DNA of 43,419 bases from a virus. Position numbers and translations under genes: made by a program. Each line of letters starts with the position of its first letter. Within the stretch, counting starts at the first letter, position 1. The DNA lies in the IMG/VR virus record IMGVR_UViG_3300035661_000125, positions 1 to 43,419 of that record; one strand, 5' to 3'. The notes beneath the pieces were generated by a model. That model was not told the DNA's origin. It searched no databases and saw only the letters and a program-made list of their open reading frames with translations. Shown here one piece after another: positions 13,753 through 43,346 of the stretch.

Positions 13753-13761
13753 GGCGTAGCC

Positions 13762-14841
13762 TCAGGAGATGACGTTGGCCGAGGCCGGGCGGATGTAGGT
13801 GGACTGGGACAGCTCACGCACGACGCGATAGAGCAGTGCCGGGTGCCGTGGCCGGCGATCGAAGCCCCAGCCGTAGAGGGCGGTGCCGGCCGGCATGATG
13901 TTGTTGACACTGGCTGGGCCGGTGCCGGGGAAGGCACCCAAGGTCAAGGACACGTCAGAGACGTAGCGGCAGGACCGGCTGGCGCCACCTGGCTTGGCCA
14001 GCGGGGTGAGCACCTGGGTGCGGTTCACGCCGCCAGGAAGTAGGCCGGCGACCGGAGGACCAGGGTTGGACAGGAAGCGCGTGGCAATCATCAGCTCCAG
14101 GTCACCGTTGGCGGCCCGGCTGACCGCCCCCGCGATGGCGGTCTGGGTGTTGTTGTTGCTGGCGTCCGACTGGTTCAGGTTGGTCATGCCCAGCCCGATG
14201 AACGTCGTCGACCCACCCAGCCCCTGATGGCGAAAGCGCATGTTCAGCGCGTTGGTGACCTCCAGGCCCCAGCCTTCTGGGTTGGACCCCGCTGTGCGAC
14301 CCCAGGCGAAGATCGTGGACGTGCCGGTGAGCGACAGACCGTGGGTGAACACCCCGTAGAACATCACCATCTCGCTGGTGGTCAGGCTGTCCAGGTTGAA
14401 GATGGAGCGCAGCAGGGTTTGCGAGACAGACGGGTCGACCTGGGCGTAGCCAGCACCGTTGAAGTTGAGCCCTCGCTGTGGCCCCCAGCCAATGCCACCG
14501 GCCAGCGTCAAGGGGGTGTCATTGGGGTAGCCATTGGCAGTGGCGCCAGTGCCGTCATCGAGCGGGAAGTAGCAGCTCAGCGCCAGCGTGCCGCGTGCGC
14601 CACCCTGGGCCAGGCGCAAGACATCGGCCTCACCGTTGGCAGGCGGCGCACCTGCCACGCCACCACTGGGAAGGATCAGCCGGCCCGAGCTGTTGAAGCT
14701 GGCCGGCGCCCCCATGACATTGCCGTCCAGGTCGACCAGCCTGCCCGATGAGTCGGCCGCCAAGGTGCCAATGGCACCCGCGTCAAGCTGGGCGTTGCTG
14801 GGGCCTGTGAGGAAGTCGCGCCTGGGATTGCTGGATGACAT
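13762..14841 (-). CDS. Tail fibre-like protein
   Basis: 359 residues; ATG 14841 has GGAG 6 bases upstream. The N-terminus is short and Gly/Asp-rich (AADSSGRLVDLDGNVMGAPA). The central part (LALSCYFPLDDGTGATANGY; GLNFNGAGYAQVDPSVSQTL) resembles a LamG/concanavalin-like sandwich used in fibres to bind carbohydrate. The gene ends 9 bases before the phosphatase-like gene. Tail fibre is inferred from composition and neighbours. Confidence 0.55.
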   Translation of the reverse strand: MSSSNPRRDFLTGPSNAQLDAGAIGTLAADSSGRLVDLDGNVMGAPASFNSSGRLILPSGGVAGAPPANGEADVLRLAQGGARGTLALSCYFPLDDGTGATANGYPNDTPLTLAGGIGWGPQRGLNFNGAGYAQVDPSVSQTLLRSIFNLDSLTTSEMVMFYGVFTHGLSLTGTSTIFAWGRTAGSNPEGWGLEVTNALNMRFRHQGLGGSTTFIGLGMTNLNQSDASNNNTQTAIAGAVSRAANGDLELMIATRFLSNPGPPVAGLLPGGVNRTQVLTPLAKPGGASRSCRYVSDVSLTLGAFPGTGPASVNNIMPAGTALYGWGFDRRPRHPALLYRVVRELSQSTYIRPASANVIS

Positions 14842-15160
14842 GGGCATCTCCGGTATACGGAAGATGATCCATGATTGACGCCAGGTTGGAGTGTTCAGCT
14901 TTTGCCAGGGAGATGGGCAACGCGACCTCCCGGTCAAGCGTTAGCGCCCACCCCCCTGACTACTTACCTAGCCCTGTTCGTATTCACCCGCCAGGCCGCT
15001 TTCCCCTGCTCCGTGGTCGCCACCGCTCGGCATATAGACCCGGGGCTCAGGCCTTGCGTTGTCTCGTTCTTATAGTGTTATGGCCGCACAACTTGGATGG
15101 GAGTCTACCTGCGACGTATACCCCACGTAAGCGAATGAAACCCCCAAATTCATGGGATAG
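14842..15160 (-). promoter_or_regulatory. Late intergenic region with operator-like and -10-like sites
   Basis: I see no convincing gene here. On the minus strand it holds GGTATAC-N6-GGTAGACT near 15,103-15,118, which matches the operator/-10 pattern of the 24.1-kb promoter (both read CGCAGGTAGACT). It also has an ACTATAAG -10-like word near 15,070 and the ACTCCAACCT motif at 14,883-14,892. A further CCGTATACCGG palindrome lies at about 14,850. It probably contains the promoter for the fibre, portal and head genes; the exact start cannot be fixed. Confidence 0.45.
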
Positions 15161-15430
15161 TCAGGGTTTCTTGCGGCGCCTGTCCGCCTCCCGGATGATG
15201 GCCGCGATCACCTGCACCAGGTCGCGGGCCTGGGTGGGGTAGATGTTGCCCATGATCTCCTTCATGCCGGCGCGGCCCTGCAGCTCAGCACAGACCCCAC
15301 GCGCGGCCCGCACAGCCCAATCCTTGACCCGGGGTGGCTTGAACTCGTCGGGGTCACCAGTAATCTCGCAGTCGAACGGGACTTGAGCCCCGTAGCGCAA
15401 GGCCTCCCGGGCGCGGTCATTCAGGTTCAT
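15161..15430 (-). CDS. Conserved phage protein, unknown
   Basis: 89 residues; ATG 15430 overlaps the upstream stop (ATGA). Sequence: a short N-terminal helix (NLNDRAREALRYGAQVPFDC), then a helical domain ending in a basic tail (IREADRRRKKP). It is the last gene before the 320-base late intergenic region, in the cluster downstream of terL. No function recognised. Confidence 0.55.
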   Translation of the reverse strand: MNLNDRAREALRYGAQVPFDCEITGDPDEFKPPRVKDWAVRAARGVCAELQGRAGMKEIMGNIYPTQARDLVQVIAAIIREADRRRKKP

Positions 15431-15861
15431 ACGTCCTTCTCCAGCACAGTCTTGCCGTCGACCACAAGCTGCATCGTGCCGCCCACGGGCGCCTCCTCGC
15501 GCAGGAAGGCCTCAGGCGTTGGCGGCATGTGGATGAGGTCGGTCAACCCCGACAGGATCAGGTCAGCGATGGCGAACACCGCCTGGCGATCGTTCTGGAA
15601 CCCCATCAGCTCGGCGCAGCGCTCGGACTTGGCCAACAGCTCTGCTGAGTTGACGCCGTGCCCCTTGGTGCCGGCGTTGACCAGCTCATGGGCCGCAGTC
15701 AGTGGCAGCCCCCAGGGTGTGGCCTTGGTCAGCCGCAGGCGCCGGTAGCGCGGGTAGATGAACATCGTGGGCTCATCGTTGTACCAGTGGTACGCCAGCA
15801 CCAGGTCACCCACGGCTCGCACCTTCCAGGCCTTTGGCCCACCCAACAAAATACCACTCAT
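15427..15861 (-). CDS. Conserved phage protein, unknown
   Basis: 144 residues from ATG 15861, which overlaps the upstream stop (ATGA). Segments: GDLVLAYHWYNDEPTMFIYP, RRLRLTKATPWGLPLTAAHE and a helical C-terminal half. No motif identifies it. It is coupled to its neighbours and lies in the terminase-to-portal interval. Confidence 0.55.
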   Translation of the reverse strand: MSGILLGGPKAWKVRAVGDLVLAYHWYNDEPTMFIYPRYRRLRLTKATPWGLPLTAAHELVNAGTKGHGVNSAELLAKSERCAELMGFQNDRQAVFAIADLILSGLTDLIHMPPTPEAFLREEAPVGGTMQLVVDGKTVLEKDV

Positions 15862-16199
15862 AGCGGATCCCCTGGCTTCACCGTGCCGTCCGGGTAGACG
15901 ATGGCGCGGCGGTTCTGCAACGCTTCGATCTTGGCCACAGCGACTGCAGTGCGTTGGGCATCCAAGGCCCGCTCGCACAACTCGTTGAAGCGCTTGGTCA
16001 TCTCGGCTGCCAGCGCCGAGCACAGCTCGGAGTAGCCCTCCATGGCTGGTCCGTAAACCCAGTTGACAGTCAGCACGGGAGCATCAGGAAGGGTGCTACG
16101 GTGCTCCTCCATCCGCTCCAGCTTTTCAACCTCGTCGGCTAGGGTGCGCAGCCGCAGCGGGTTCAGGATGTCGGTGTTGGCTGTGGCGGTGTCAGTCAT
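15858..16199 (-). CDS. Conserved phage protein, unknown
   Basis: 113 residues. ATG 16199 overlaps the terL stop (ATGA); upstream in-frame sequence is antisense or out-of-frame terL and is not used. A helical N-terminus (LADEVEKLERMEEHRSTLPD) is followed by GYSELCSALAAEMTKRFNEL. The short helical character fits a minor packaging or head-associated protein; no function is claimed. Confidence 0.55.
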   Translation of the reverse strand: MTDTATANTDILNPLRLRTLADEVEKLERMEEHRSTLPDAPVLTVNWVYGPAMEGYSELCSALAAEMTKRFNELCERALDAQRTAVAVAKIEALQNRRAIVYPDGTVKPGDPL

Positions 16200-17716
16200 G
16201 CGGTCCTCCAGTTGGTCTTTACCTTGAGGGTCGACTTGGGCTTGGGCTTGCACCTGGCGTAGCGGCGCATCATGTAGCCGTAGCGGCTGGCTGAAATCAC
16301 GTCGTCGCCGATCTTGACGATCAACCCGTTCTCGCGGTGGTAGGTGCGGAACTCGCCCAGCCACTTGACGCAGGTGTTGAACACCTTCCAGCGGCCCGTC
16401 ATCATTCGCTCCATCATCTCCAGGATCCCGGCCTCGACCCCGTTGCCACCATCAGGGAACTGGGCGTGGTCACTGAGCATGTCCAGCCCGTGGCCAGCGT
16501 AGGTGTCCTTGAGGGTGCGCTGGTCCTTGGCGTCGAACTTGCCACCGGACTGCTTGCCGTCGTGTGGCCAGGCCCACGGCAACCACTTTCCCCAGGGCAG
16601 CACGGCGGCGGCGAACAGCAGCGGCGGCATCTCGCGCTCCTGCAGATCGCGCACAAGGTAGATCCGGTCGTTGTCGCGGTCCCAGGCCAGCTCCGCAGCA
16701 CCCGTAGGGTGATCCCAGCCAAAGTCAATGCCAGCGATGCGTGGCCAGCTCGCTGGGATCTCGAAGGGCTCGACGGTGATCGACGCCTCGGCCACCGGGA
16801 ACACCAGGCCTGAGCCCAGCTCCGGGATGCCGTCCATCCGAGCTTTCAGCTCGCTGGGCTTGCTCGCGTACTGCGATGACAGCTCAGCGATCTCCTTGGG
16901 TCCGAGGTGGGGTGCATCCTTCCAGCCGGCCATCACCAGCGCACGCATAGCCAGACCAGTCTCAGGATCGGTGACCGGCCCCTCGATCGGCTTGCCTTGG
17001 GTGTAGAACTTGTGCACCACCCGCGTCACACCCTTGAGCGGGGTGAAGGACAGCATCACCATGCCGTCCGTCGTCATGGTCCGCATGACGCACTCATTCA
17101 TCACGTCCTCGGGCGGCTCCTCGTCCAGGAGGATCACCTCGCGCTCAACGGATGCGAATGAGCCGGCGCCCTGGTCGTAGGACTTCAACTCACCTCGGGA
17201 CAGGCCACCCGTGGCGTGGCGCACGGTGAAGGTGTCCACCGTCTCGGGCACACCCTGTTTGGGTGACCACTTGTTGAGCTTGGCGAACGGGATCATCCCC
17301 GTGCCGAACTCACCCCACTGGCCAAACAGCTTGACCTGTAGGCCTTCCCGTACCAGCTTGGCCGTCTCGCCCGCGACCCACACACGCACAGGCGAATGAA
17401 ACCGCTTGCCAATCCACCACCACGGGTAGTCGCCCGTCATGTGGCACACCAGCTCGTAGACGGCGGCCTCGGTCTTGCCGATCCGGTTGCCGGCCATGAA
17501 GCCACGCACGCGGAACTTGGAGCCGTAGCCAAAGAAGGCCAGGTGCTTGACGTACTTCTCGCGGGCCAGCGGGCCAGTGTCCGGGAACATCAGCGCGAAG
17601 CGGTTCTGCTGGATCCACTGGTCGCGCTCCTTGAGCAGCGCCAACGCCCTGCGCCGGTCCTCAGGGCCAAGCAGCATGATGTCGGCAGGGCTCAAGGGAA
17701 GGGTCATGTCAGCCAT
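16196..17716 (-). CDS. terL: Terminase large subunit
   Basis: 506 residues. The ATPase domain has Walker A GNRIGKT (76-82) and Walker B VILLDEE (194-200) with the catalytic Glu pair. The nuclease domain begins at GIDFGWDHPTG (Asp331), an RNase H-like metal site. The protein packages DNA through the portal and cuts the concatemer. An alternative ATG at 17707 overlaps the stop of a preceding 40-codon frame (ATGA), the coupling style used across this operon, so the true start may be three codons later. Confidence 0.95.
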   Translation of the reverse strand: MADMTLPLSPADIMLLGPEDRRRALALLKERDQWIQQNRFALMFPDTGPLAREKYVKHLAFFGYGSKFRVRGFMAGNRIGKTEAAVYELVCHMTGDYPWWWIGKRFHSPVRVWVAGETAKLVREGLQVKLFGQWGEFGTGMIPFAKLNKWSPKQGVPETVDTFTVRHATGGLSRGELKSYDQGAGSFASVEREVILLDEEPPEDVMNECVMRTMTTDGMVMLSFTPLKGVTRVVHKFYTQGKPIEGPVTDPETGLAMRALVMAGWKDAPHLGPKEIAELSSQYASKPSELKARMDGIPELGSGLVFPVAEASITVEPFEIPASWPRIAGIDFGWDHPTGAAELAWDRDNDRIYLVRDLQEREMPPLLFAAAVLPWGKWLPWAWPHDGKQSGGKFDAKDQRTLKDTYAGHGLDMLSDHAQFPDGGNGVEAGILEMMERMMTGRWKVFNTCVKWLGEFRTYHRENGLIVKIGDDVISASRYGYMMRRYARCKPKPKSTLKVKTNWRTA

Positions 17717-19394: not shown

Positions 19395-20254
19395 GCTCGG
19401 TTCCCCTTGTGTGCCTTGTTGGCCAAGGCCAATAGCTCGGCGTCGATCTCGGCTTGGGTGCGCGGTGCCAGTGGCTTGTTGCCGCTGGTCAGGTCCAGCT
19501 TGTCGCCGAACTTCGCCGCGTTGCGTTTGCTGGCCAGCCAGCGGAAGTGGTGAGCCTGGGCACTGGCCTTGGCCGTGGTCGTCACCGTGGCGCCGTCCAA
19601 CGCCTCGGTGGCCTTCTGCAGCAAGGCCTCGGCCGACATCTCCAGCGCCAGGTCATACGCGCGCACACGCGAGGGCTCTGCCAGGATCCAGTCAGTGACC
19701 TCCCTCACCTTGAGTTTCATGGCCTGGCACAGCTTGCCCAGCCACTCCCCTTCATGCAGGGCGTCAAGCAGTTGTGGCCACTCGGCCGACAGGTCCAGCG
19801 TCTGGCCTGGCTTCCTGTTGCTGGTGAAGGCCAAGACCAGGGCTGTCTCGCGCGGGGGCGCGTCATGCGCGCTCGCCTGTGCGTGCGTGTGGGGGTCCGC
19901 GTCCACCGCCTCGGGCTCATCCTGGGGCGCTGTCTTACCCTTACCCTTGTTCGCCTTGGGTTTGGGGGCGGGACCGGCAGGCATCGAACCTGCACCCTTG
20001 GCGCGTACTGCTGCGCCCTGCTCGACCAATCGAGCTGCGGTCCCCTTCGGCTTGGCCTTGTGTGCTGCCCTCGGCTTCGCCTCGTCCGCCCCGGGAACCC
20101 ACTCCGGGGAAGAACCCGCCTCACCGTCCAACAATCCGTCCGGTGAGGACTTCACCCCTTCACGGGGGTCACTTGCCGCTACAGGTGTAGCTGCGCCCTC
20201 GCTTGCTGCTGCTGCAGCAAGGCGTCGGGCTCGTTTCTTGGGACTGCCTGGCAT
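19391..20254 (-). CDS. terS: Terminase small subunit with long disordered N-terminus
   Basis: 287 residues from ATG 20254, 5 bases after the stop of the preceding frame (a GTG 11 codons upstream is also open). The C-terminal ~130 residues match small terminases of the Sf6/P22 group: LLDALHEGEWLGKLCQAMKL, YDLALEMSAEALLQ and HHFRWLASKRNAAKFGDKLD. This subunit binds pac or cos DNA and hands it to TerL. The first ~130 residues are low-complexity, basic and Pro/Ala-rich and contain a tRNA-like stretch (19,969-20,044). It is separated from terL by five small genes. Confidence 0.78.
   Translation of the reverse strand: MPGSPKKRARRLAAAAASEGAATPVAASDPREGVKSSPDGLLDGEAGSSPEWVPGADEAKPRAAHKAKPKGTAARLVEQGAAVRAKGAGSMPAGPAPKPKANKGKGKTAPQDEPEAVDADPHTHAQASAHDAPPRETALVLAFTSNRKPGQTLDLSAEWPQLLDALHEGEWLGKLCQAMKLKVREVTDWILAEPSRVRAYDLALEMSAEALLQKATEALDGATVTTTAKASAQAHHFRWLASKRNAAKFGDKLDLTSGNKPLAPRTQAEIDAELLALANKAHKGNRA
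19969..20044 (-). other. tRNA-like cloverleaf inside terS
   Basis: On the coding strand the acceptor arms GGGACCG and CGGTCCC pair perfectly. The D arm is GCTC-GATTGGTC-GAGC, and the T arm is GCAGG-TTCGATG-CCTGC with a near-canonical T loop. The anticodon arm is abnormal: GGCGC/GCGCC enclose an 8-base loop (AGCAGTAC) with no U33. It is therefore a tRNA relic or mimic rather than a normal tRNA, and it lies in the disordered N-terminal part of terS. Confidence 0.55.
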
Positions 20255-36565: not shown

Positions 36566-37747
36566 ATGGACGACGACAGCACCGGCTCTGCCCGGGAACA
36601 TCTGGTTGCTGAGAGTGGCACGGTCGCGCTACTCAATCGCGGCGAGATCGACATGCAGATCAGCACGGCCAAGAAGTGGCCACGCTCCATCAAACGCTTC
36701 CGCGACGAGGCGCTGCAAATGGTCACCCTCAACGAGGTGATCGCGTCCGAGTGCTTCTACGTGCTCCCGCGCAAGAAGTACGACAAGGTGACGCGCCGCT
36801 ACGTCGATGTCAGCATCGAAGGCCCGAGCGCTCGCTTTGCCGAGATCGTGCTCAGCGCCTGGGGCAACTGCCGTGCTGGCGCCCGTGTGGTCAGCGACCA
36901 GGGTGACTACATCACCGCCCAGGGCGTGTTTCACGACCTGGAGCGCAACGTGGCCATCACCTACGAGGTGCAGCGCCGCATCGTGGACGCGGAGGGTCGG
37001 CGCTTCAGCGCCGACATGATCGGCGTCACCGGCAACGCCGCCAGCTCGATCGCCCTGCGCAACGCGGCGCTCAAGGGGGTGCCCAAGGCCTTCTGGGCTG
37101 ACCTGCAAACCGCCGCCAGAGAGTGCGCCATGGGCGACTTCAAGACCCTGGGCACCCGCCGGGCCAACGCCATGCAGGATCTGCTGCGCTTTGGCGTGCA
37201 GCCCACCACGGTCTACTCCTTCCTGGGCATCGCCGGCATCGACGACATCAGCCTGGACAACTTGGTCACCCTGCGCGGCATCTTGACCTCGCTGCGTGAA
37301 GGCGACACCACGCCCGAGCGTGCCTTTGCCATGGAGGGCGCCGAGGAACCCCAGGCCAGCCAGGCGCCGGCCGTGCCGCGCAAGAAGGCCGACGCCCCGG
37401 CGCCGGCTCCTGAGCCCGCTGTGGCGTCCGAGCCCGCTCAGGCACCCACCCCTGCACCAGCCGCCGATGCGGCCCCCGTGCAGGCCGCTGAGCCCGTTGC
37501 TGCCCCCTCCCCGGCGCCGGCTCCATCCCCTACGCCAGCGCCAGCACCTGACGAACCGGCGGTGGCCGAGGGTAGCCCGCTGGCCAGTGACGGTGAAAAG
37601 GCCAACATCCGGGTCAAGGCGCGCGTCAAGTCGCTCGACCTCATCACGGTGCTTGATGAGCTGGGCATCACCTCGGTGAAGGATCCCGTCACCCTGGAAG
37701 GCTTGACCCAGGATGACTTCGCCAAACTGCGCCGCCGGCTCGCCTGA
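36566..37747 (+). CDS. Putative ssDNA-annealing recombination protein
   Basis: 393 residues; AGGAG 7 bases before ATG 36566. The core (FAEIVLSAWGNCRAGARVVS; YITAQGVFHDLERNVAITYE; DMIGVTGNAASSIALRNAAL; KAFWADLQTAARECAMGDF) is a phage family found beside exonucleases. Residues ~270-345 are a Pro/Ala linker (APAPAPEPAVAS-like repeats), and the end (VLDELGITSVKDPVTLEGLT) is a small helical domain, as in Erf-like annealing proteins. The annealing role is inferred from position next to an exonuclease. Confidence 0.6.
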   Translation: MDDDSTGSAREHLVAESGTVALLNRGEIDMQISTAKKWPRSIKRFRDEALQMVTLNEVIASECFYVLPRKKYDKVTRRYVDVSIEGPSARFAEIVLSAWGNCRAGARVVSDQGDYITAQGVFHDLERNVAITYEVQRRIVDAEGRRFSADMIGVTGNAASSIALRNAALKGVPKAFWADLQTAARECAMGDFKTLGTRRANAMQDLLRFGVQPTTVYSFLGIAGIDDISLDNLVTLRGILTSLREGDTTPERAFAMEGAEEPQASQAPAVPRKKADAPAPAPEPAVASEPAQAPTPAPAADAAPVQAAEPVAAPSPAPAPSPTPAPAPDEPAVAEGSPLASDGEKANIRVKARVKSLDLITVLDELGITSVKDPVTLEGLTQDDFAKLRRRLA

Positions 37748-38337
37748 TGCTGACCTTCGAGCCCTCCTCGCACACCTACCGCTGGCACGGACAGGTGGTG
37801 CCCAGCGTGACCCAGGTGCTGAATCTGCTGCAGCCTTTCGCGGGTGTGCCCAAGCACATCCTCGAAGTGGCCCAGGAGCGGGGCACGTTTGTGCACGCCA
37901 TGACCGAGGCCTATGACCTGGGTGAGCTGGACGAGGAGGCGCTGGCCTTGATGGAGGACGGCCTGTACATGGGCTACCTCAAGGCGTGGAAGGCCTTTAT
38001 CCGCGACCGCAAGCCGGTCTGGGATTCGGTCGAGGAGCGCGACTACCACGACGCCGGGTTTGCCGGCACCTGGGACCGCACCGGCACGCTGGACGGCGAG
38101 CCTGAGCCCTGGGTCATCGACATCAAGAGCAGCCTGCAAGACCACAAGGCCTGGGGGATGCAGACCGCAGCCTACCGGGCCATGCGTGCCAACCAGGATC
38201 CGCGCTACATCCGCGCCAGGCGCGGCTCGGTGCAGCTCAGGCCCGATGGCCGCTACCGATTTCTCTCGTGGGACAACCCGGCCGACTGGCCGGCGTTCTG
38301 CTCCCTCCTTAACGTCTACCGCTGGAGCAAGTCATGA
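37747..38337 (+). CDS. PD-(D/E)XK phage exonuclease
   Basis: 196 residues, overlapping the previous stop (TGATG). VTQVLNLLQPFAGVPKHIL and GTFVHAMTEAYDLGEL are typical of the RecB/Cas4-like phage exonucleases. The catalytic segment is GTWDRTGTLDG ... WVIDIKSS ... QTAAYRA, giving D-(x)n-D-x-K. It would resect dsDNA ends for the annealing protein. Confidence 0.78.
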   Translation: MLTFEPSSHTYRWHGQVVPSVTQVLNLLQPFAGVPKHILEVAQERGTFVHAMTEAYDLGELDEEALALMEDGLYMGYLKAWKAFIRDRKPVWDSVEERDYHDAGFAGTWDRTGTLDGEPEPWVIDIKSSLQDHKAWGMQTAAYRAMRANQDPRYIRARRGSVQLRPDGRYRFLSWDNPADWPAFCSLLNVYRWSKS

Positions 38338-39206
38338 CACAAGACATCACCGTCGCCACCCTCGCCACCACCGGCCCGATGGCCGATCTGCAAGCCCTGG
38401 TGGCCAAGGTGCTCGCCGAGCCGAGCAGCATCACCATCGTCAGTCCGGGGCTGCAGGAATACGTCAACCGTATCGGTCCCGACCTGGAGGTGATCGACGC
38501 CATCATCATCGACTCGCCCGAGATGCTGGCCGAGGCCCAGCAAATGGCGGGCCGCCTGTCTGGCGTCTCAGTCGCGATCGAGAAGGAGCGCCTGGAGCGC
38601 ACCAAGCCCCTGCGCGACCTGGCCTCCCGCATCAACGACGGCTACAACGCGGCCGGCACCTTCATCAACACCAAGGTCGACGGCACCAAGACCAAGATCC
38701 TCGGCTACAACAAGGAGGTGCAGCGCAAGGCCGCCGAGCAGGCAGAGATCGAGCGCAAGGCGCACGAGGAAGCGGTGGCCGCCGCTGCTTTGGTTGAGGC
38801 CGCAGCCCAGACCGAGGCGCTGAACCTGGCTCAGCAGGCCCAGGAAGCGCGCCAGGCGGGCAGCGTGGTCGCCGCCAACGATCTGATGGAGCGCGCTGCA
38901 GTGGCGTCCGACACGGCGCTGCATCAGGCCCAGAAGGTTGTCAGCTACAGCAGCGGCGGCGGGCACGCAGCACCCAAAACCAAAGGTGTGCGTGGCAAGT
39001 ATGTGGCTGAGTGCACCAATGCCCCGAAGCTGATCGCCCATGTGGCCGTGCTGATCGAGAAGGGTGACCTCTCGCTGGTCGGTGTGCTGAGCGTGGACCA
39101 GTCGGCCCTGAACAAGCTGGCCGATCTGCAGCGCGAAAACTTCAAGGTGCCCGGCTGCCACGCCGAGTTCAAGGAGTCCGTGTCCATCCGCAAGGTGGCG
39201 GCGTGA
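38334..39206 (+). CDS. Coiled-coil phage protein of the recombination operon
   Basis: 290 residues; start overlaps the exonuclease stop (ATGA). A helical N-terminal part (LEVIDAIIIDSPEMLAEAQQ; KERLERTKPLRDLASRINDG) leads to a long Ala/Glu coiled coil (AEQAEIERKAHEEAVAAAAL) and a C-terminal domain (CTNAPKLIAHVAVLIEKGDL; NFKVPGCHAEFKESVSIRKV). Recurs beside phage recombinases; role unknown. Confidence 0.65.
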   Translation: MTQDITVATLATTGPMADLQALVAKVLAEPSSITIVSPGLQEYVNRIGPDLEVIDAIIIDSPEMLAEAQQMAGRLSGVSVAIEKERLERTKPLRDLASRINDGYNAAGTFINTKVDGTKTKILGYNKEVQRKAAEQAEIERKAHEEAVAAAALVEAAAQTEALNLAQQAQEARQAGSVVAANDLMERAAVASDTALHQAQKVVSYSSGGGHAAPKTKGVRGKYVAECTNAPKLIAHVAVLIEKGDLSLVGVLSVDQSALNKLADLQRENFKVPGCHAEFKESVSIRKVAA

Positions 39207-39325: not shown

Positions 39326-39421
39326 GCCCAACTTTGGAGCTAAGCGGGCGCTGCCCGCACAGGAGGAATGATGGACAACGACAGCACGCCGGCAGCGCGC
39401 CGCTTGAGCGACCAGTTAGGC
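39326..39421 (-). repeat. attC site A1
   Basis: 96 bp. Minus-strand order: GCCTAAC, TGGTC, GCTCAAGC ... GCTTAGC, TCCAAA, GTTGGGC. L'' has the extra C relative to L'. The interior holds AGGAGG and ATG codons on the plus strand. Confidence 0.82.
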
Positions 39422-39466
39422 CTGCGGGCTGGAGAGGAAAAGCATGAGACTGAGCAAATTCATTGA
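39368..39466 (+). CDS. Short leader ORF inside attC A1
   Basis: A perfect AGGAGG precedes ATG 39368. The 32 codons (MMDNDSTPAARRLSDQLGLR...) run through the right arm of attC A1, including GTTAGGC, and overlap the start of the next gene by 23 bases. It may be a leader peptide coupling translation to the cassette gene. Confidence 0.4.
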   Translation: MMDNDSTPAARRLSDQLGLRAGEEKHETEQIH

Positions 39467-39680
39467 CGGCCTGAACACGCTGCGCCCGTACTACACGGAC
39501 GGCGACGGCTTCCACATCGGCGCCGAGCACGACCAGTTTTACGCCTACAAGACCGACAAGCCCCTGACGCCAGCAGACCAGCAGCGCATGTGCGAGCTTG
39601 GCTGGTTCCAGTCGGAAGGCGGCTTGTCCGAGGACGGCGGCGAGTACGACCCGGACAACGGGTGGAGCGCCTTCACTTGA
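39444..39680 (+). CDS. Cassette 1 protein, unknown
   Basis: 78 residues; GAGAGG 7 bases before ATG 39444. MRLSKFIDGLNTLRPYYTDG, FHIGAEHDQFYAYKTDKPLT, then MCELGWFQSEGGL and an acidic end. It resembles small cassette/phage proteins with the 'L......L........H.....Y.......S......L..LGW' layout. Function unknown. Confidence 0.65.
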   Translation: MRLSKFIDGLNTLRPYYTDGDGFHIGAEHDQFYAYKTDKPLTPADQQRMCELGWFQSEGGLSEDGGEYDPDNGWSAFT

Positions 39681-39684
39681 GCGG

Positions 39685-39754
39685 GCCTACCGACAGAGTG
39701 GAGGGGCGCGACGCAGCTTCATCGCGGCGCGTCCCTTCGCGCGACAGGTTGTGC
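39685..39754 (-). repeat. attC-like site A2 (degenerate)
   Basis: Minus-strand GCACAAC at one end and GGTAGGC (GTTAGGC with T to G) at the other. Arms GAAGGGACGCG and CGCGCCCCTC pair with one extra base. The core mutation probably prevents recombination here. Confidence 0.5.
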
Positions 39755-39773
39755 CACACGGGGGACAAGTGAG

Positions 39774-40259
39774 ATGGGTTTGAGCGCGCACCAGAAGAAT
39801 GGCGGACACGACGAATGGCTGACTCCACCGGAGATCCTGCGGGCGCTAGGCGCCTTCGATCTTGACCCGTGCGCGCCAGTGGTGCGGCCTTGGGAAACGG
39901 CGGCACAGCACTACACGGCGCACGACGATGGGCTGGCGTTGCCGTGGTTTGGCCGCGTGTGGTGCAACCCACCATTCGGGCGCGAGGCCGTGAAGTGGCT
40001 TCGGAAGATGCGCGACCACGGGAACGGGGTGGCCTTGATTCCGGCGCGCACCGAGACGGCGATGTTTTACGAAACGATCTGGGGAGCGGCAGACGGCGTG
40101 CTGTTCCTCAAAGGGCGCCCGCACTTCCACTACGTGGACGGACGGCGGGCGGATTTCAACAGCGGCGCCCCGATAGCACTGGTGGCCTACGGAAGCGCGA
40201 ACCTGGACGCACTCAGGCAAAGCGGCCTCGGCTTCGTGGTAGTAGGGCACAACGCCTGA
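39774..40259 (+). CDS. dam: Cassette 2: phage-type DNA N6-adenine methyltransferase
   Basis: 161 residues. DEWLTPPEILRALGAFDLDP (13-32) and VWCNPPFGREAVKWLRKM (62-79, with the N-P-P-F catalytic motif) define the Dam family found in phages (PF05869 type). It methylates adenine using S-adenosylmethionine; phage versions protect DNA from restriction. The last codons (GCC TGA) lie beyond the cassette boundary in the next attC. Confidence 0.85.
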   Translation: MGLSAHQKNGGHDEWLTPPEILRALGAFDLDPCAPVVRPWETAAQHYTAHDDGLALPWFGRVWCNPPFGREAVKWLRKMRDHGNGVALIPARTETAMFYETIWGAADGVLFLKGRPHFHYVDGRRADFNSGAPIALVAYGSANLDALRQSGLGFVVVGHNA

Positions 40260-40306
40260 GATAAGTTGCCGACCGCAGGGAGGTCGGCTTGATTGAACTA
40301 TTGGGC
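40247..40306 (-). repeat. attC site A3
   Basis: 60 bp. Minus-strand order: GCCCAAT, AGTTC, AATCAAGCC-GACC ... GGTCGGC ... TCAGGC, GTTGTGC. The long GGTCGGC/GCCGACC stem is close to classic attC sites. R'' ends in AAT in place of AAC. Confidence 0.8.
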
Positions 40307-40327
40307 AGCACGCCCGGAAGGAAAAAC

Positions 40328-40513
40328 ATGAACTACCGCGAAACCGATGATGAATGCCCAAGCTGTGGCGCTACTACGCACGACCGAAAGCACAACAAAC
40401 CGAACGAGCCACAGGGACTTGATGAATGCCCGCATTGCGGTGCAGAGAAGTGCTGCATGTGCGACATGGGCGACGACGTTGAGTGCCTAAGCTGCGACAG
40501 CACCGAAGACTGA
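40328..40513 (+). CDS. Cassette 3: zinc-ribbon protein
   Basis: 61 residues; GGAAGG before ATG 40328. Four Cys pairs (CPSC, CPHC, CCMCD, CLSC) in an acidic sequence, suggesting one or two zinc ribbons. Function unknown, probably protein or nucleic-acid binding. Confidence 0.68.
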   Translation: MNYRETDDECPSCGATTHDRKHNKPNEPQGLDECPHCGAEKCCMCDMGDDVECLSCDSTED

Positions 40514-40517
40514 TGCT

Positions 40518-40541
40518 GCCCAACGTTTGAATTAGGCCCGC
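40518..40541 (-). repeat. attC half-site A4
   Basis: GCCCAAC-GTTTGA-ATTAGGCCC is a normal R'/L' half (minus: GGGCCTAAT-TCAAAC-GTTGGGC). No matching L''/R'' half is seen within 150 bases to the right, so the site is truncated or strongly degenerate. Confidence 0.55.
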
Positions 40542-40567
40542 TTGTGGCCGACACGAAAGGAAAGACG

Positions 40568-40894
40568 ATGGACCAAGGAACACACGAAGCACCGCCCCCG
40601 ATTGCTTGGGGATCGGATGCCCTGCGCGACATTGCTACCGAGCGGCGACGGCAGATCGAGGTTGAGGGCTGGACGCCCGAGCACGATGACAAGCACATGG
40701 CCGGCAACATGGCTGTTGCCGCCGCATCGTATGCCGTTGGACCCTACACCGCAGGGTCAGACCTGCAGCGTTTGATCTGGCGCTGGTCTGGATGGTCCTT
40801 GCAATGGCTCAAGCCGAAAAACCCGCGTGCAGACCTGGTGCGGGCTGGCGCGCTGATCGTCGCCGAGATTGAGCGGCTGGACCGCGCCGCGTGA
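40568..40894 (+). CDS. Cassette 4: phage-type ERxRQ..EGWT protein
   Basis: 108 residues; AAAGGAA before ATG 40568. DIATERRRQIEVEGWTPEHD, then DKHMAGNMAVAAASYAVGPY and LIWRWSGWSLQWLKPKNPRA, RADLVRAGALIVAEIERLDR. This is a common phage protein family (sometimes linked to dNTP pyrophosphohydrolase domains; I am unsure of activity). It shows that cassette content overlaps with phage early genes. Confidence 0.7.
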   Translation: MDQGTHEAPPPIAWGSDALRDIATERRRQIEVEGWTPEHDDKHMAGNMAVAAASYAVGPYTAGSDLQRLIWRWSGWSLQWLKPKNPRADLVRAGALIVAEIERLDRAA

Positions 40895-40895
40895 G

Positions 40896-40956
40896 GCCGA
40901 ACGATTGAGTTAAGGCCGCTGCCGAAGGCAGTCGGGCCTTAAACGAAGGGTTAGCC
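40896..40956 (-). repeat. attC site A5
   Basis: 61 bp. Minus-strand order: GGCTAAC, CCTTC, GTTTAAGGCCC ... GGCCTTAAC, TCAATC, GTTCGGC. L'' has an extra T. The hairpin is capped by GCTGCC/GGCAG. Among the clearest sites. Confidence 0.85.
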
Positions 40957-40993
40957 AGCACCCTGTAAATGCTGGCAAGCGAATGGAAATCCA

Positions 40994-41440
40994 ATGAGCA
41001 TTGAAAGCCTTGACCATATTGTTTCTGGCGCGATCTACGACTTTGCCGGTTTTTTGACAACCCGCGATGAGCGCATCACGCTTTCAGCCACCGACGACGC
41101 AGCACCAGCCGCCGATGCCGTGAAAGCGTTTCTCACGCTGCGCGGCGTGGACCAGGCCTGCGATCCTTTCTTCCAGTGGCCTGCACGGTGCAGACCTGGC
41201 AGGGCAGCCTCACCGTGCGGCGAAACCATGAACATCATCAAGAGCGCGATGCGTGACGACCCGCACTATGCGTGGACTTGGCATTGCAACGTCGCGGTTT
41301 CGATGATGGACGAGGGGGCGCCGCACGACGCGGCCAATGCTGCGGCGGCGCGGTTCATGCGGCTGGCCTTTGACGTGGACACCACCAAGGCCCCGCAAAG
41401 CGCTGGAGCCGATGACGAGCCGGTATTGGTGTCTGGATAA
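40994..41440 (+). CDS. Cassette 5: apparent fusion of two small cassette proteins
   Basis: 148 residues. Residues 1-65 (MSIESLDHIVSGAIYDFAGF; LTTRDERITLSATDDAAPAA) match a cassette/phage protein type; residues 79-148 (MNIIKSAMRDDPHYAWTWHC; NVAVSMMDEGAPHDAANAAA; ARFMRLAFDVDT) match another that usually stands alone. The junction carries a GCACGGTG/CACCGTGC inverted pair (41,173-41,218). The stop TAA sits exactly on the cassette boundary. Confidence 0.65.
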   Translation: MSIESLDHIVSGAIYDFAGFLTTRDERITLSATDDAAPAADAVKAFLTLRGVDQACDPFFQWPARCRPGRAASPCGETMNIIKSAMRDDPHYAWTWHCNVAVSMMDEGAPHDAANAAAARFMRLAFDVDTTKAPQSAGADDEPVLVSG

Positions 41441-41521
41441 CGTGGAGTTCAGCGGCCCGCCGCTGACCCGACCGAGTAACCAATGCCCGCGATGCGGGTC
41501 CGATGCAACTACCAGTTAGGC
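41435..41521 (-). repeat. attC site A6
   Basis: 87 bp. Minus-strand order: GCCTAAC, TGGTA, GTTGCATCGGACC ... GGGCCGCTGAAC, TCCAC, GTTATCC. The arms pair with extra bases in L''. A CCCGC/GCGGG hairpin lies in the loop. Confidence 0.78.
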
Positions 41522-41544
41522 CACGTTGGCCGGAAAGGAAGCAG

Positions 41545-41844
41545 ATGGGGCAGCGAAACAGAACCCTCGGGAATGAGTTCTACGGGCCAAATGAAGTGCT
41601 CTCTGAGCTTGACCGCCTCAAGTTTGCCGTGAGCAGCATGGCGCAACTGTTGGAGCCGGGATCGTATGCGCGTGAAAACGCGAACAACATCGTAGAGGGC
41701 CTGGGGCGTCGGCTCGACTGGCTACACGATGCGGTGCGAATTCAAGCGGAGAAGCGCGAAGCTGAAGCCGTCAATCTTCAGCGCACCATCGACAGGCTCA
41801 GAGCAAACCGCGAAGTGACGCCGCCGACAGAGTGCGTGGCCTAA
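41545..41844 (+). CDS. Cassette 6 protein, helical
   Basis: 99 residues; GGAAAGG before ATG 41545. GPNEVLSELDRLKFAVSSMA, RENANNIVEGLGRRLDWLHD, then a coiled coil (IQAEKREAEAVNLQRTIDRL). Stop TAA at the cassette boundary (GCCTAA/C). Unknown. Confidence 0.65.
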   Translation: MGQRNRTLGNEFYGPNEVLSELDRLKFAVSSMAQLLEPGSYARENANNIVEGLGRRLDWLHDAVRIQAEKREAEAVNLQRTIDRLRANREVTPPTECVA

Positions 41845-41904
41845 CGATTGAGCTAACCAGCACGGCCGGCTTGCCGGATGGGTCAGGTTGAGCGGATGTT
41901 AGGC
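41839..41904 (-). repeat. attC site A7
   Basis: 66 bp, the most classical copy. Minus-strand order: GCCTAAC, ATCC, GCTCAACC ... GGTTAGC, TCAATC, GTTAGGC. R'' and R' are perfect inverted core sites, and the extra C is in L''. Confidence 0.88.
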
Positions 41905-41944
41905 AGCGCCCGGCCCATGCTGGGCAACAACGAAAGGAACTGAG

Positions 41945-42226
41945 ATGGACAGAAAGACGGCGAACAGGGAATGGCGCGATGTGACGCGAGGCGCCCCGGA
42001 AGGCGCACCGACCGGCCGAACGGTGCATGCGTTCGCGCAGCGCGTGGAAGCGCTGGCGATAGCTGGGTGCGACAAGCGGCACGCTGTCGCGAGGTCAGCC
42101 GGCGGACTGCTGGCGAACTTTGCCTACAACCTGGCGCAGAAGCCAGGCCACGCACTAACCAGCGACGACGTGGAGATGCTGGACAAGATGCGGCGGCAGT
42201 GGGATGCGGCTGTTGGTGCTGCATAA
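41945..42226 (+). CDS. Cassette 7 protein, unknown
   Basis: 93 residues; AAAGGAA before ATG 41945. DRKTANREWRDVTRGAPEGA, then VHAFAQRVEALAIAGCDKRH and a helical end (TSDDVEMLDKMRRQWDAAVG). Stop TAA on the boundary (GCATAA/C). Unknown. Confidence 0.62.
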   Translation: MDRKTANREWRDVTRGAPEGAPTGRTVHAFAQRVEALAIAGCDKRHAVARSAGGLLANFAYNLAQKPGHALTSDDVEMLDKMRRQWDAAVGAA

Positions 42227-42308
42227 CGTTCGAGCTGAAAGGTGCGCGCGATGAAGCCCGAAAACGAGACACCGGCCGTTGCGCCTCCTTTCGAGCGAGG
42301 GGTTGGGC
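42221..42308 (-). repeat. attC site A8
   Basis: 88 bp. Minus-strand order: GCCCAAC, CCCTC, GCTCGAAAGG ... CCTTTCAGC, TCGAAC, GTTATGC. The extra C lies in L''. The plus-strand start codon of the next gene is in the loop. Confidence 0.82.
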
Positions 42309-42466
42309 GGCCGGTGGAACAGCGCGCCAGCGCCGGCACGCTGACGCCTGAACAGCGAGCGCGCCTGATTTCCAGCGGCCCCAACGCTGGCCCCGTGCGC
42401 TCGGCAGGTTGCCACGAGTGCGCTTGGGGCAAGGTGGCCGGATGCTGGCGCTGCGGGAGCCGGTGA
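42251..42466 (+). CDS. Cassette 8 protein a, N-terminus encoded by attC
   Basis: 71 residues from ATG 42251 inside attC A8. MKPENETPAVAPPFERGVGR is the attC-encoded part. Then TLTPEQRARLISSGPNAGPV and a C-terminal HECAWGKVAGCWRC with three Cys. Composition is partly low-complexity, so expression is uncertain. The stop overlaps the next ATG. Confidence 0.45.
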   Translation: MKPENETPAVAPPFERGVGRPVEQRASAGTLTPEQRARLISSGPNAGPVRSAGCHECAWGKVAGCWRCGSR

Positions 42467-42714
42467 TGAGCATGGACTACATCCGCAGAGCCTACAAGGT
42501 TCCGGCCAAGCGCGGAATGACCGTCACGATTGTCGGTGACGGCGCGCGCATTCAAGCGCGCATCGTCGGTTCACGCGGCCAGTACTTGCGGCTGTGGATT
42601 CCTGGCGGCAAGCGATCTCACCTGTACCACCCGACCGATGCGCTGGAATACCCGGCGGCGGCGTGCAGCAAGACGCCCAACTTCGGAGTTGAGGCCCAGC
42701 CTCGAAAGGACTAA
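42466..42714 (+). CDS. Cassette 8 protein b, conserved MDYIRR family
   Basis: 82 residues, ATGA overlap with the previous frame. MDYIRRAYKVPAKRGMTVTI, VGDGARIQARIVGSRGQYLR, LHLYHPTD-like end. I know this pattern from small phage and cassette proteins with an SH3-like barrel. The last ~11 residues are read from the next cassette's attC, so the native C-terminus was probably replaced. Confidence 0.66.
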   Translation: MSMDYIRRAYKVPAKRGMTVTIVGDGARIQARIVGSRGQYLRLWIPGGKRSHLYHPTDALEYPAAACSKTPNFGVEAQPRKD

Positions 42715-42764
42715 CGATGAACGACAACGTACCGAAGGCTGTGGCCTCGAACGACCTGTTAGGC
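42675..42764 (-). repeat. attC site A9
   Basis: 90 bp. Minus-strand order: GCCTAAC, AGGTC, GTTCGAGGCC ... GGCCTCAAC, TCCGAA, GTTGGGC, with the extra C in L'' and further CAGCC/GGCTG pairing. The stop of one gene and start of the next lie in the loop. Confidence 0.85.
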
Positions 42765-42980
42765 CCAGTAGTGGAGTTCAGCCAGAAGTGGGGGATGGCT
42801 ATCGAGCATGGAACTTATCCGGCATGGGAAAGAGACATGCGCTCCGCGCTCGACGCAGCAGTTGCCGCAGAGCGCGAGCGGTGCAAGGCGCGGGCAGTGC
42901 AGATCGTGGAGTGGCACCGCAACGACTACAACCGCCAGCAGATTGACCCTATCGTGGCCGAACTGCGAAACGGGCTCTAG
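42717..42980 (+). CDS. Cassette 9 protein, N-terminus encoded by attC
   Basis: 87 residues from ATG 42717, 2 bases after the previous stop. The first 16 residues (MNDNVPKAVASNDLLG) come from attC A9. FSQKWGMAIEHGTYPAWERD and AAVAAERERCKARAVQIVEW are typical of small phage proteins. Function unknown. Confidence 0.6.
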   Translation: MNDNVPKAVASNDLLGPVVEFSQKWGMAIEHGTYPAWERDMRSALDAAVAAERERCKARAVQIVEWHRNDYNRQQIDPIVAELRNGL

Positions 42981-42981
42981 G

Positions 42982-42988
42982 GCCTAAC
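42982..42988 (-). repeat. Right end of the cassette array (core half-site A10)
   Basis: GCCTAA/C (minus G/TTAGGC) marks the start of the last cassette. The sequence to its right has no attC arm, so this is the junction with phage DNA. The minus-strand target there reads CTTGTG. Confidence 0.6.
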
Positions 42989-43097: not shown

Positions 43098-43346
43098 GTG
43101 CCCAACCCGGACACCCCCGATGATCGCAAGGCTCGCGTGGCCTACCTGCCGGTGAGCCCGTCCCGCTATGTGCGCCTAGCCACCGCCCAAGCGGCCACGG
43201 GCTACACCATTGAGGCGATACAGACCAAGATCAAGCGTGGCGTCTGGCTGGAGGGGTATGAGTACATTCGCGCCCCAGATGGCAACGTGCTGGTGGATCT
43301 GGTGGGGTACGAGCGATGGGTAGAAGGCCAACGACGGGCGGGGTAG
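43098..43346 (+). CDS. xis: Excisionase
   Basis: 82 residues from GTG 43098 with GAGGTG 6 bases upstream. YVRLATAQAATGYTIEAIQT, then KIKRGVWLEGYEYIRAPDGN and VLVDLVGYERWVEGQ follow the phage excisionase pattern ('GVW.EG.....PDG...VD...IE.WV'). It is a small winged-helix DNA-bending protein needed for prophage excision. It overlaps the integrase start by 31 bases. Confidence 0.85.
   Translation: MPNPDTPDDRKARVAYLPVSPSRYVRLATAQAATGYTIEAIQTKIKRGVWLEGYEYIRAPDGNVLVDLVGYERWVEGQRRAG

What the first reader, a model, noticed from the sequence alone, without database searches (positions are those of the whole stretch)
39326..42988. Phage genome carrying an integron-type cassette array without an integron integrase
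Between the phage recombination genes and xis/int lie nine small genes or gene pairs, each bounded by a 60-96 bp inverted-repeat element. Seen directly: outer boxes fit RYYYAAC/GTTRRRY, inner boxes pair with one extra base in L'', loops vary, and L'-R' spacers begin TC (TCAATC twice, TCAAAC, TCAGGC). Known: these are the defining traits of integron attC sites. Inference: this is a cluster of attC sites lacking integrase (CALIN) carried by a temperate phage, which would let cassettes travel between cells by phage and be picked up or lost with a resident integron's IntI. As far as I know attC sites in phage genomes have been found only rarely.
Basis: partly seen in the sequence, partly recalled or inferred. 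Interest (0 to 1): 0.95.

Follow-up and report, generated by a model that had tools for sequence, protein, structure and literature searches.

The report
Phage cassette array with reversed attC
This bacterial virus carries a row of small swappable genes separated by the recombination sites of bacterial integrons, but with the genes facing the opposite way from normal, a layout that recurs in many other phage sequences and suggests phages share their own pool of exchangeable genes.

Summary
An attC covariance model trained on 29 bacterial sites finds 8 attC sites at 39,326-42,764 (E 3e-7 to 1.5e-3) and no convincing one elsewhere in the window; a ninth is degenerate. The phage is a circular 61.4-kb temperate phage without an integron integrase. 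The same polarity appears in 45 phage loci including this one (147 antisense vs 19 sense intervals; chromosomal integrons 15 vs 57) and in a held-out set (44 vs 5). The IntI crossover point then falls right after the upstream gene's stop codon; the mobile unit would be attC first, sometimes with the start codon inside the hairpin, then the gene. Cassettes, one 100% identical, recur in otherwise dissimilar phage contigs with homology ending at attC boxes, so exchange occurs; that host IntI does it is inferred. Cargo includes several methyltransferases. attC arrays in phages and their recombination by IntI1 were already published (Qi et al. 2023). I found no report of the inverted polarity in seven paper searches.

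The parts
39326..39421 (-). attC site 1; SD AGGAGG and ATG (39368 or 39371) in its loop begin a 32-residue leader ORF that overlaps the next gene's start
   Evidence: R1 38.1 bits E 6e-7; folds as attC on + strand, z -2.5; translation
39444..39680 (+). cassette 1 gene, 78 aa, unknown
   Evidence: ORF; no PHROG match and no Pfam match over cut-off
39685..39754 (-). attC site 2 (weakest of the eight)
   Evidence: R1 23.8 bits E 0.0015
39774..40259 (+). cassette 2 gene, phage-type DNA N6-adenine methyltransferase (Dam family)
   Evidence: phrog_111 E 4e-41; PF05869 over cut-off
40247..40306 (-). attC site 3
   Evidence: R1 31.2 bits E 3e-5
40328..40513 (+). cassette 3 gene, 61-aa zinc-ribbon-like protein (resemblance to Lar-type anti-restriction proteins is my inference)
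   Evidence: phrog_5584 E 3e-10; cassette homolog in phage locus L325, 71% nt over 232 bp
40518..40573 (-). degenerate ninth attC-like element, right half decayed
   Evidence: R1 9.8 bits, E 3
40568..40894 (+). cassette 4 gene, 108 aa, domain found in many phage proteins, unknown function
   Evidence: phrog_11504 E 1e-33 and eight other PHROGs below 1e-15
40896..40956 (-). attC site 5
   Evidence: R1 31.8 bits E 2e-5
40994..41440 (+). cassette 5 gene, 148 aa unknown; TAA stop lies in the R' box of the next attC
   Evidence: ORF; no family
41435..41521 (-). attC site 6
   Evidence: R1 25.1 bits E 7e-4
41545..41844 (+). cassette 6 gene, unknown; TAA stop in next R' box (start may be 41503)
   Evidence: ORF; no family
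41839..41904 (-). attC site 7, textbook boxes and extrahelical base
   Evidence: R1 39.0 bits E 4e-7; only 11.4 bits on the other strand; fold z -2.0
41945..42226 (+). cassette 7 gene, 93 aa unknown; TAA stop in next R' box; homologs in phage arrays L267 and L281 (near-duplicate contigs) with other neighbours
   Evidence: 78-79% nt over 294-295 bp
42221..42308 (-). attC site 8 with a start codon (42251) in its loop
   Evidence: R1 39.3 bits E 3e-7; ssDNA fold not better than shuffles
42251..42466 (+). cassette 8 gene a, starts inside attC 8; N-terminus MKPENETPAVAPPFERGVGR largely attC-encoded
   Evidence: translation
42466..42714 (+). cassette 8 gene b, stop-start overlap with gene a; homolog in phage array L325, homology ends exactly at the R' box in both
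   Evidence: 83.5% nt over 218 bp, end offsets 0 and 0; phrog_2730 E 3e-11
42675..42764 (-). attC site 9; holds the stop of gene 8b and the SD and ATG of cassette 9
   Evidence: R1 36.1 bits E 2e-6
42717..42980 (+). cassette 9 gene, starts inside attC 9, 87 aa unknown
   Evidence: no family
42982..42988 (-). lone R-type box GCCTAAC closing the array, no attC after it
   Evidence: sequence
43098..43346 (+). phage excisionase flanking the array; the phage integrase begins at 43316 and runs off the window
   Evidence: phrog_539 E 4e-11; full int read in L003, phrog_1 E 2e-43
36566..39206 (+). phage recombination genes flanking the array on the left
   Evidence: 36566-37747 phrog_3657 (unknown function; called ssDNA-annealing by position, my inference), then exonuclease families phrog_298 and phrog_10477

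Best explanation
A temperate phage, probably of a Burkholderiales host, carries an integrase-less array of integron attC sites whose polarity is inverted relative to the genes. SHOWN: the sites are attC-like in sequence, arm pairing and the strand-defining extrahelical base; all eight are antisense to the genes; the same inverted layout recurs in many phage sequences; cassettes recur between phages with homology ending at attC boxes; no IntI was found. INFERRED: when the DNA is single-stranded, the + strand (the attC bottom strand) folds and host-encoded IntI cleaves at G^TTRRRY, which on the gene strand is RYYTAA^C, directly after the upstream gene's stop codon. The mobile unit is then [attC - gene - stop]: attC is a 5' leader, sometimes with RBS and start codon in its loop. 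Excised cassettes re-insert at other attC sites or the terminal box, and all are read in the sense direction by phage transcription entering from the left. The pool includes anti-restriction and nucleic-acid-modifying genes, giving the phage an exchangeable counter-defence module.
For: Model hits. Strand control: all 153 hits in the chromosomal integron loci (21 of 22 loci had hits) lie on the strand expected from intI; the arm bearing the extra base agrees with the model strand 197 vs 4 (25 ties) in phages and 116 vs 4 (7 ties) in references. Gene direction: codon-usage caller 147 antisense / 19 sense / 15 none in 45 phage loci vs 15 / 57 / 35 in references; longest-ORF rule 95 / 23 / 63 ties vs 7 / 92 / 8; 14 further viral loci scored only afterwards gave 44 / 5 / 4 and 29 / 6 / 18 ties. 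100 antisense ORFs hit 81 PHROG families, best 2e-77; 70 sense ORFs hit 2, best 4e-6. ORF stop exactly in the box in 75 of 181 phage intervals on the gene strand, 36 of 181 on the other. Cassette sharing: L283/L320 428 bp at 100%, attC to next box; right ends within 12 bases of the box in both contigs 8 of 41 vs 0.17 expected. TerL in 19 of 48 records. IntI over cut-off in 0 of 11 and 0 of 41 viral records, but in 114 of 300 genomes of the order of a Comamonas genome. Five of six other phage attC sites recombined with IntI1 in the published assay (PMC9892861).
Against: No excision, circle or junction read was observed. Gene direction rests on ORF prediction in most loci; a minority of intervals call sense (19, 23, 5 and 6 in the four tests) and many tie by length. 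Inverted polarity is not universal in phages: the published TJE1 has its one detected attC sense, and the weak hits in Shewanella phage M16-3 and Vibrio phage p16, which carry bacterial-type integrons, are sense too (with annotation). One locus (L125/L341) holds attC sites on both strands. Only 1 of 13 array right ends (L295) resembles bacterial attI (14 of 20 bases; none of 1000 background boxes reach it); the window's end scores at background. Homologous recombination inside conserved attC hairpins could also make box-bounded mosaics. Half of the window's sites do not fold better than shuffles at the 5% level. Relatives with similar int/xis show no convincing attC in the loci held, so the array is not an ancestral part of that int lineage.
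Confidence: 0.75

Rival explanations
1. A piece of an ordinary bacterial chromosomal integron or CALIN was captured by the phage by imprecise excision or illegitimate recombination.
For: This is what Qi et al. describe for Vibrio phages (PMC9892861); the boxes match those of integrons from the likely host order, where integrons are common.
Against: A captured piece would keep genes sense to attC; here all eight sites are antisense. Cargo with family matches is phage-type. The 93-aa cassette 7 protein was found in 0 of 300 order-level genomes (the tool warns that an empty answer without a positive control shows nothing).
Confidence: 0.1
2. The hairpins are phage regulatory or translational leader elements that descend from attC but are no longer recombined; mosaics arise by homologous recombination between the conserved hairpins.
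For: Starts with SD-like motifs sit inside attC in 44 of 157 cassettes; phage recombination genes lie next to the array; attC is conserved enough for short-homology recombination.
Against: The extra base and crossover boxes are kept in nearly all sites, which a leader would not need; several homologies stop at the 7-base box rather than in the hairpin body.
Confidence: 0.2
3. The array is mobilised by a phage-encoded recombinase rather than host IntI.
For: The array lies beside xis/int in the window and about 3 kb from a Tyr recombinase in G324.
Against: Only 4 of 24 other array-bearing records examined hold a PF00589 match over cut-off (records may be fragments); the window's int is an ordinary phage integrase.
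Confidence: 0.08
4. IMG/VR contigs with arrays are misclassified bacterial integrons and the polarity is an artefact.
For: 29 of 48 records had no phrog_2 TerL match (other TerL families were not tried).
Against: Loci whose record has a TerL match show the same polarity (37 antisense, 5 sense, 22 ties); the window phage is circular with phage structural genes; MW202573 is annotated with P22-like coat and portal, and the CDS around its 4 attC sites are all on the opposite strand; bacterial integrons would show sense genes.
Confidence: 0.03

Closest known systems
Phage CALINs of Qi et al. 2023 (TJE1, PH101, P12002L, MW202573)
   Same: attC clusters without intI in phage genomes; methyltransferase cargo; five of six tested attC sites recombine with IntI1 in their assay (abstract and most of methods, results and discussion seen)
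   Different: Inverted gene/attC polarity is not mentioned in what I saw; their example MW202573 has it by my test, while the one TJE1 site I detected is sense; PH101 and P12002L gave no hit with my model
Sedentary chromosomal integrons (reference loci from the order of a Comamonas genome)
   Same: attC boxes, extra base, stop codon often near the box
   Different: They have intI and genes mostly sense to attC; the phage array has no intI and antisense genes, and an attI-like end was found in only one of 13 phage loci tested
Treponema atypical integrons
   Same: Unusual polarity within an integron
   Different: There intI is transcribed toward the array in the same direction as cassette genes (PMC3607928, passages only); gene/attC polarity was not examined here
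Phage accessory-gene mosaics (morons, early-region variable loci; recalled)
   Same: Small, variable anti-restriction and nucleic-acid genes near recombination genes
   Different: Boundaries here are site-specific recombination sites, not diffuse homology

Membership tests
attC site | R''/R' boxes RYYYAAC...GTTRRRY | tested here: met
   8 window sites by covariance model; both boxes strict in 3 of 8, the rest depart by one or more bases, some in ways also seen in the training sites such as GGCTAAC and GTTATGC
attC site | L''/L' arms with extrahelical base in L'' | tested here: met
   bulge arm agrees with model strand 197 vs 4, 25 ties, over 226 phage sites including the window's; window alignments
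attC site | bottom strand folds into the attC hairpin | tested here: inconclusive
   clear for 39326 and 41839; 4 of 8 beat shuffles at 5%, 42221 does not at all
attC site | recombined by IntI | not testable with these tools
   shown for other phage attC sites in PMC9892861
CALIN | two or more attC sites and no nearby intI | tested here: met
   8 sites; no TIGR02249 hit in the window or the fuller phage record
canonical integron cassette array | gene sense to, and 5' of, its attC | tested here: not met
   attC on minus strand in 8 of 8 sites, genes on plus; gene strand backed by PHROG hits for cassettes 2, 3, 4 and 8b
complete integron | intI, attI and Pc | tested here: not met
   no intI; array end not attI-like; Pc not examined
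temperate phage | int, xis, repressor and virion genes | tested here: met
   phrog_1, phrog_539, phrog_4, phrog_334, phrog_156, phrog_5653; lysogeny itself not tested
Bcep22/F116-like podovirus group (name recalled) | portal and genome-size similarity | tested here: inconclusive
   portal 37.5-41.6% identical in the 30 rows listed of 213 matching records, genomes of 57-63 kb such as DC1, BcepMigl, BcepIL02

The most novel reading that the evidence does not exclude
Phages have evolved their own mirror-image integron cassette pool. attC sites are placed 5' of the genes, serve in part as translation leaders with RBS and start codon in the hairpin loop and in-frame attC-encoded N-terminal peptides, and put the IntI crossover exactly after the stop codon. 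Arrays are expressed from the phage operon, shuffled by whatever IntI the host supplies, and their polarity keeps the phage pool functionally apart from bacterial integrons.
Probability: 0.55. Interest if true: 0.94.

Novelty: new variant of a known kind. Interest (0 to 1): 0.88.

Why it matters
Phage genomes are mosaic, but the process that shuffles their small accessory genes is mostly taken to be diffuse homologous or illegitimate recombination. Here a site-specific module, integron attC, bounds accessory genes in many phage sequences, some of them anti-restriction genes, with a polarity opposite to that of bacterial integrons. That makes an open question testable: do phages use the host's integron integrase to trade counter-defence genes? 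It also gives a second way in which an attC site can be joined to a gene, which bears on the unsolved origin of cassettes, and it warns that attC finders that ignore gene strand will file phage arrays as ordinary CALINs.

Tried and rejected
A home-made box-and-arm scan separated sites poorly and was replaced by the covariance model. The repeat finder returned no inverted repeats and Rfam none. The flanking exonuclease gave no match in the phages collection and in IMG/VR only the phage's own fuller record. Loci with int/xis relatives (L004-L013) and with more or less similar integrases in bacterial genomes (L157-L173, L176) had no convincing attC hit, so an empty or refilled version of the same locus in close kin could not be compared for the window phage. 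A crude per-site stop-codon test was noisy (91 antisense, 48 sense of 226) and was replaced by the interval tests, all reported. I first thought several array ends resembled attI; a scored test left only L295 of 13. Homologs of array genes in MW202489, V45v66, MW202867 and Persinger lie in stretches without attC hits, so some cassette genes also exist as ordinary phage genes. Bcep176, AUS531phi, ACPWH and ACF1 stretches: no attC. PH101 (first 100 of 132 kb) and P12002L (48,000 of 48,689 bases) gave no hit, although Qi et al. report attC there, and hits in the Vibrio and Shewanella phages were weak: the model misses attC types far from its training set. Cassette 7 protein: no match in the phages collection or in 300 genomes. 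On MW202573 the longest-ORF rule called one of three intervals sense although its annotated genes are all on one strand there, a measure of that rule's error.

Rows dropped: the phage set holds 226 sites in 45 loci (43 IMG/VR, MW202573, the window), entered by hand. Most hits below 25 bits were not entered (four of L246, L251 and the window were). Hits of 25 bits or more not entered: L266, L152, L131, L255, L050, L090, L044, L103, one each of L315, L123, L305, an end-cut one of L298, and one of L125 on the opposite strand; L030, L043, L064, L068 and L081 repeat contigs entered under other ids. The reference set holds 127 of the 153 chromosomal hits (not entered: all 8 of L231, 6 of L238, 4 of L227 and 8 others). 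L267 and L281 are near-duplicates over 1.5 kb; leaving out L281 changes nothing, and one of the 8 box-ended pairs is such a repeat (L281/L288). 35 loci had been left unscanned; they were scanned and used as a held-out set of 14 loci, 69 sites of 25 bits or more, without L342 (the window's own phage) and L346 and L363 (copies of L288); L341 overlaps L125 by 3.7 kb and was kept. For one search, 100 of 165 antisense ORFs were used (the longest, less three left out by hand); for, 70 of 161 sense ORFs.

Full report
WHAT THE WINDOW IS. The window is a 43.4-kb virus record. A second IMG/VR contig (G001, 61,544 bp) matches it at 99.99% in two blocks that wrap round, with a 127-bp repeat at its ends, so the phage is a circle of 61,417 bp. 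It has phage terminase, portal, head, DnaB-like helicase, recombination, CI-like repressor, excisionase and integrase genes. Its portal is 37.5-41.6% identical to those of the 30 listed phages, of 57-63 kb, such as Burkholderia phages DC1 and BcepIL02. Its integrase is 53% identical to that of two Acidovorax phages and 55-60% to seven bacterial-genome loci: four Comamonas, one Comamonadaceae MAG, one Rhodocyclaceae MAG and one labelled Pantoea. A Burkholderiales host is therefore likely; this is an inference.

ARE THE ELEMENTS attC? I built a covariance model from 29 bacterial attC sites: 26 from 13 loci next to an integron integrase (12 from genomes of the order of a Comamonas genome, one from a Rhodocyclaceae MAG) and 3 from class 1 integrons on a P1 record. 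The window took no part. It finds eight sites in the window, all at 39,326-42,764, E 3e-7 to 1.5e-3; the next hit is 11.4 bits. A ninth element is degenerate (9.8 bits). On 22 chromosomal integron loci the same model gives 153 hits in 21 of them, every one on the strand expected from intI; 26 of these are training sites. Single-strand folding beats shuffles at the 5% level for four of eight sites and clearly fails for 42221-42308.

THE POLARITY IS INVERTED. All eight attC sites are on the minus strand; the cassette genes are on the plus strand, backed by family matches such as the Dam-type methyltransferase (phrog_111, E 4e-41) and those of cassettes 3, 4 and 8b. In a normal cassette the gene is sense to its attC and precedes it. 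To see whether this is a quirk I collected other attC-bearing phage sequences by gene kinship and by two attC sub-motifs and scored them with the model: 226 sites in 45 loci, window included, were carried forward. By a codon-usage gene caller the intervals between sites hold genes antisense to attC in 147 cases, sense in 19, undecided in 15; in reference integrons the counts are 15, 57 and 35. By the cruder longest-ORF rule: phages 95 antisense, 23 sense, 63 ties; references 7, 92, 8 (Fisher p 4e-30, though intervals within a locus are not independent). Among 17 loci whose record holds a TerL match: 37 antisense, 5 sense, 22 ties. Fourteen further viral loci, fetched earlier but scored only at the end with the codon table already fixed, gave 44 antisense, 5 sense, 4 undecided, and 29, 6, 18 ties by ORF length. 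The arm that bears the extra base agrees with the model strand in 197 of 201 decided phage sites and 116 of 120 reference sites; the training sites had been picked partly by that feature. As a control on gene direction, 100 antisense ORFs match 81 PHROG families (best E 2e-77), while 70 sense ORFs from the same kind of intervals match 2 (best 4e-6). The deposited phage MW202573, one of the published phage CALINs, shows four attC sites opposite to its annotated genes. The rule has exceptions: TJE1 has one detected site in the sense direction, and the weak hits in Shewanella phage M16-3 and Vibrio phage p16 are sense too (annotation), as expected for captured bacterial integrons.

WHAT THE INVERSION MEANS. 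IntI cuts the attC bottom strand at G^TTRRRY of R' (established knowledge; the box is given in PMC9892861). With attC inverted, this point on the gene strand is RYYTAA^C at the left edge of the site. The upstream ORF's stop codon sits exactly in that box in 75 of 181 phage intervals on the gene strand, and within -10 to +15 of the edge in 130 of 181; on the other strand the counts are 36 and 48; in references, 26 and 66 of 107 on the sense strand, 8 and 17 on the other. In the window it holds for the genes ending at 41440, 41844 and 42226. The exchangeable unit is then attC followed by its gene and stop. In 44 of 157 phage cassettes the first start codon with an SD-like motif lies inside attC. 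In the 27 examples printed, 14-30 residues are attC-encoded and different genes carry similar N-termini such as 'LSEGLG' or 'VERxV'. The window has such starts at 39368 (a 32-residue leader ORF), 42251 and 42717.

DO CASSETTES MOVE? Contigs L283 and L320 share 428 bp at 100% identity, from one attC to the next box, and nothing else in the stretches compared; L267 and L288 share a 394-bp cassette at 99.5%, besides other pieces. Of 41 similar stretches inside arrays, 8 end within 12 bases of a box in both contigs, against 0.17 expected (maximum 2 in 500 trials); one of the 8 is a near-duplicate pair. Window cassette 8b matches one in L325 at 83.5%, ending at the box in both; cassette 7 matches ones in the near-duplicates L267 and L281 at 78-79%; cassette 3 matches L325 at 71%. 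L275, L302 and L324 share both flanks, and L274, L279 and L283 the right flank, with right-flank homology starting at or within ten bases of the closing box where one was found; their arrays differ, except that L275 and L324 share one 402-bp stretch at 81%. This is evidence of exchange at attC; it does not show that IntI did it, since homologous recombination in the hairpins could give some of these patterns.

WHO RECOMBINES THEM? No attC-bearing viral record tested has an integron integrase over the curated cut-off: 0 of 11 and 0 of 41 (which includes G001); one (G321) holds an IntI fragment. Only 4 of 24 array records tested have a Tyr recombinase over cut-off. Records may be fragments. Integron integrases over cut-off occur in 114 of 300 genomes of the order of a Comamonas genome. 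Host IntI in trans is the simplest source. Qi et al. report IntI1 recombination of five of six phage attC sites (abstract and text parts 2-4 of 7 seen, plus passages).

CARGO. Of 100 cassette proteins from other phages, Pfam gives eight DNA-methyltransferase matches in three families, and single Lar restriction-alleviation, dATP/dGTP pyrophosphohydrolase, RyR and RNA ligase matches; PHROGs add HNH endonucleases. The window has a Dam-type methyltransferase and a zinc-ribbon protein. Anti-restriction is a reasonable but untested theme.

NOVELTY. attC clusters in phages are known (PMC9892861). I found no description of inverted gene/attC polarity, attC as a translation leader in phages, or cassette sharing among phages in seven answered paper searches (listings only, open-licence PMC papers, no preprints) or in the passages of PMC9892861 on orientation and strand. 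Its supplement was not seen. Treponema integrons are atypical in another way: intI reads toward the cassettes (PMC3607928, passages). I rate it a new variant of a known kind.

LIMITS. Gene direction in most loci is predicted. The phage set was found by motif and is not a census. The model misses attC types far from its training set. The right end of the window's array does not resemble attI; only L295 of 13 does.

Noticed in passing
G001, window-based coordinates 44748-54179 (beyond the window): A single 3143-aa ORF on the minus strand follows the integrase, reminiscent of the giant proteins of Bcep22-like phages (recalled).
   Followed up: no
window 19967-20044: ARAGORN reports a tRNA-like structure with an odd four-base anticodon inside a predicted coding region, probably a false call.
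   Followed up: no
G321 (L248) 10745-11096: A viral contig with two attC sites holds an IntI fragment: profile positions 1-95 and 286-315 with the middle missing; a possible remnant of an integron that once had its own integrase.
   Followed up: partly
L009 1246-1557: In a related phage contig only the first 110 residues of the int align, next to an xis homolog.
   Followed up: no
L325 3684-13648: One viral contig has at least 18 attC sites in 10 kb, several about 100 nt long with start codons in the loop.
   Followed up: partly
L295 array right end: A phage array ends in GTCTACTTTACGTTATGC, close to the attI core of two chromosomal integrons; a phage-borne attI-like site.
   Followed up: partly
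G329 (L257) 13378-17689: A contig with a relative of the window's 36566-37747 protein has eight attC sites, one of 53 bits, on the same strand as that gene; the array genes run the other way, again antisense to attC in most intervals.
   Followed up: partly
L125 and L341 (overlapping contigs): attC sites occur on both strands of one viral locus, the odd one lying apart from the main array.
   Followed up: no
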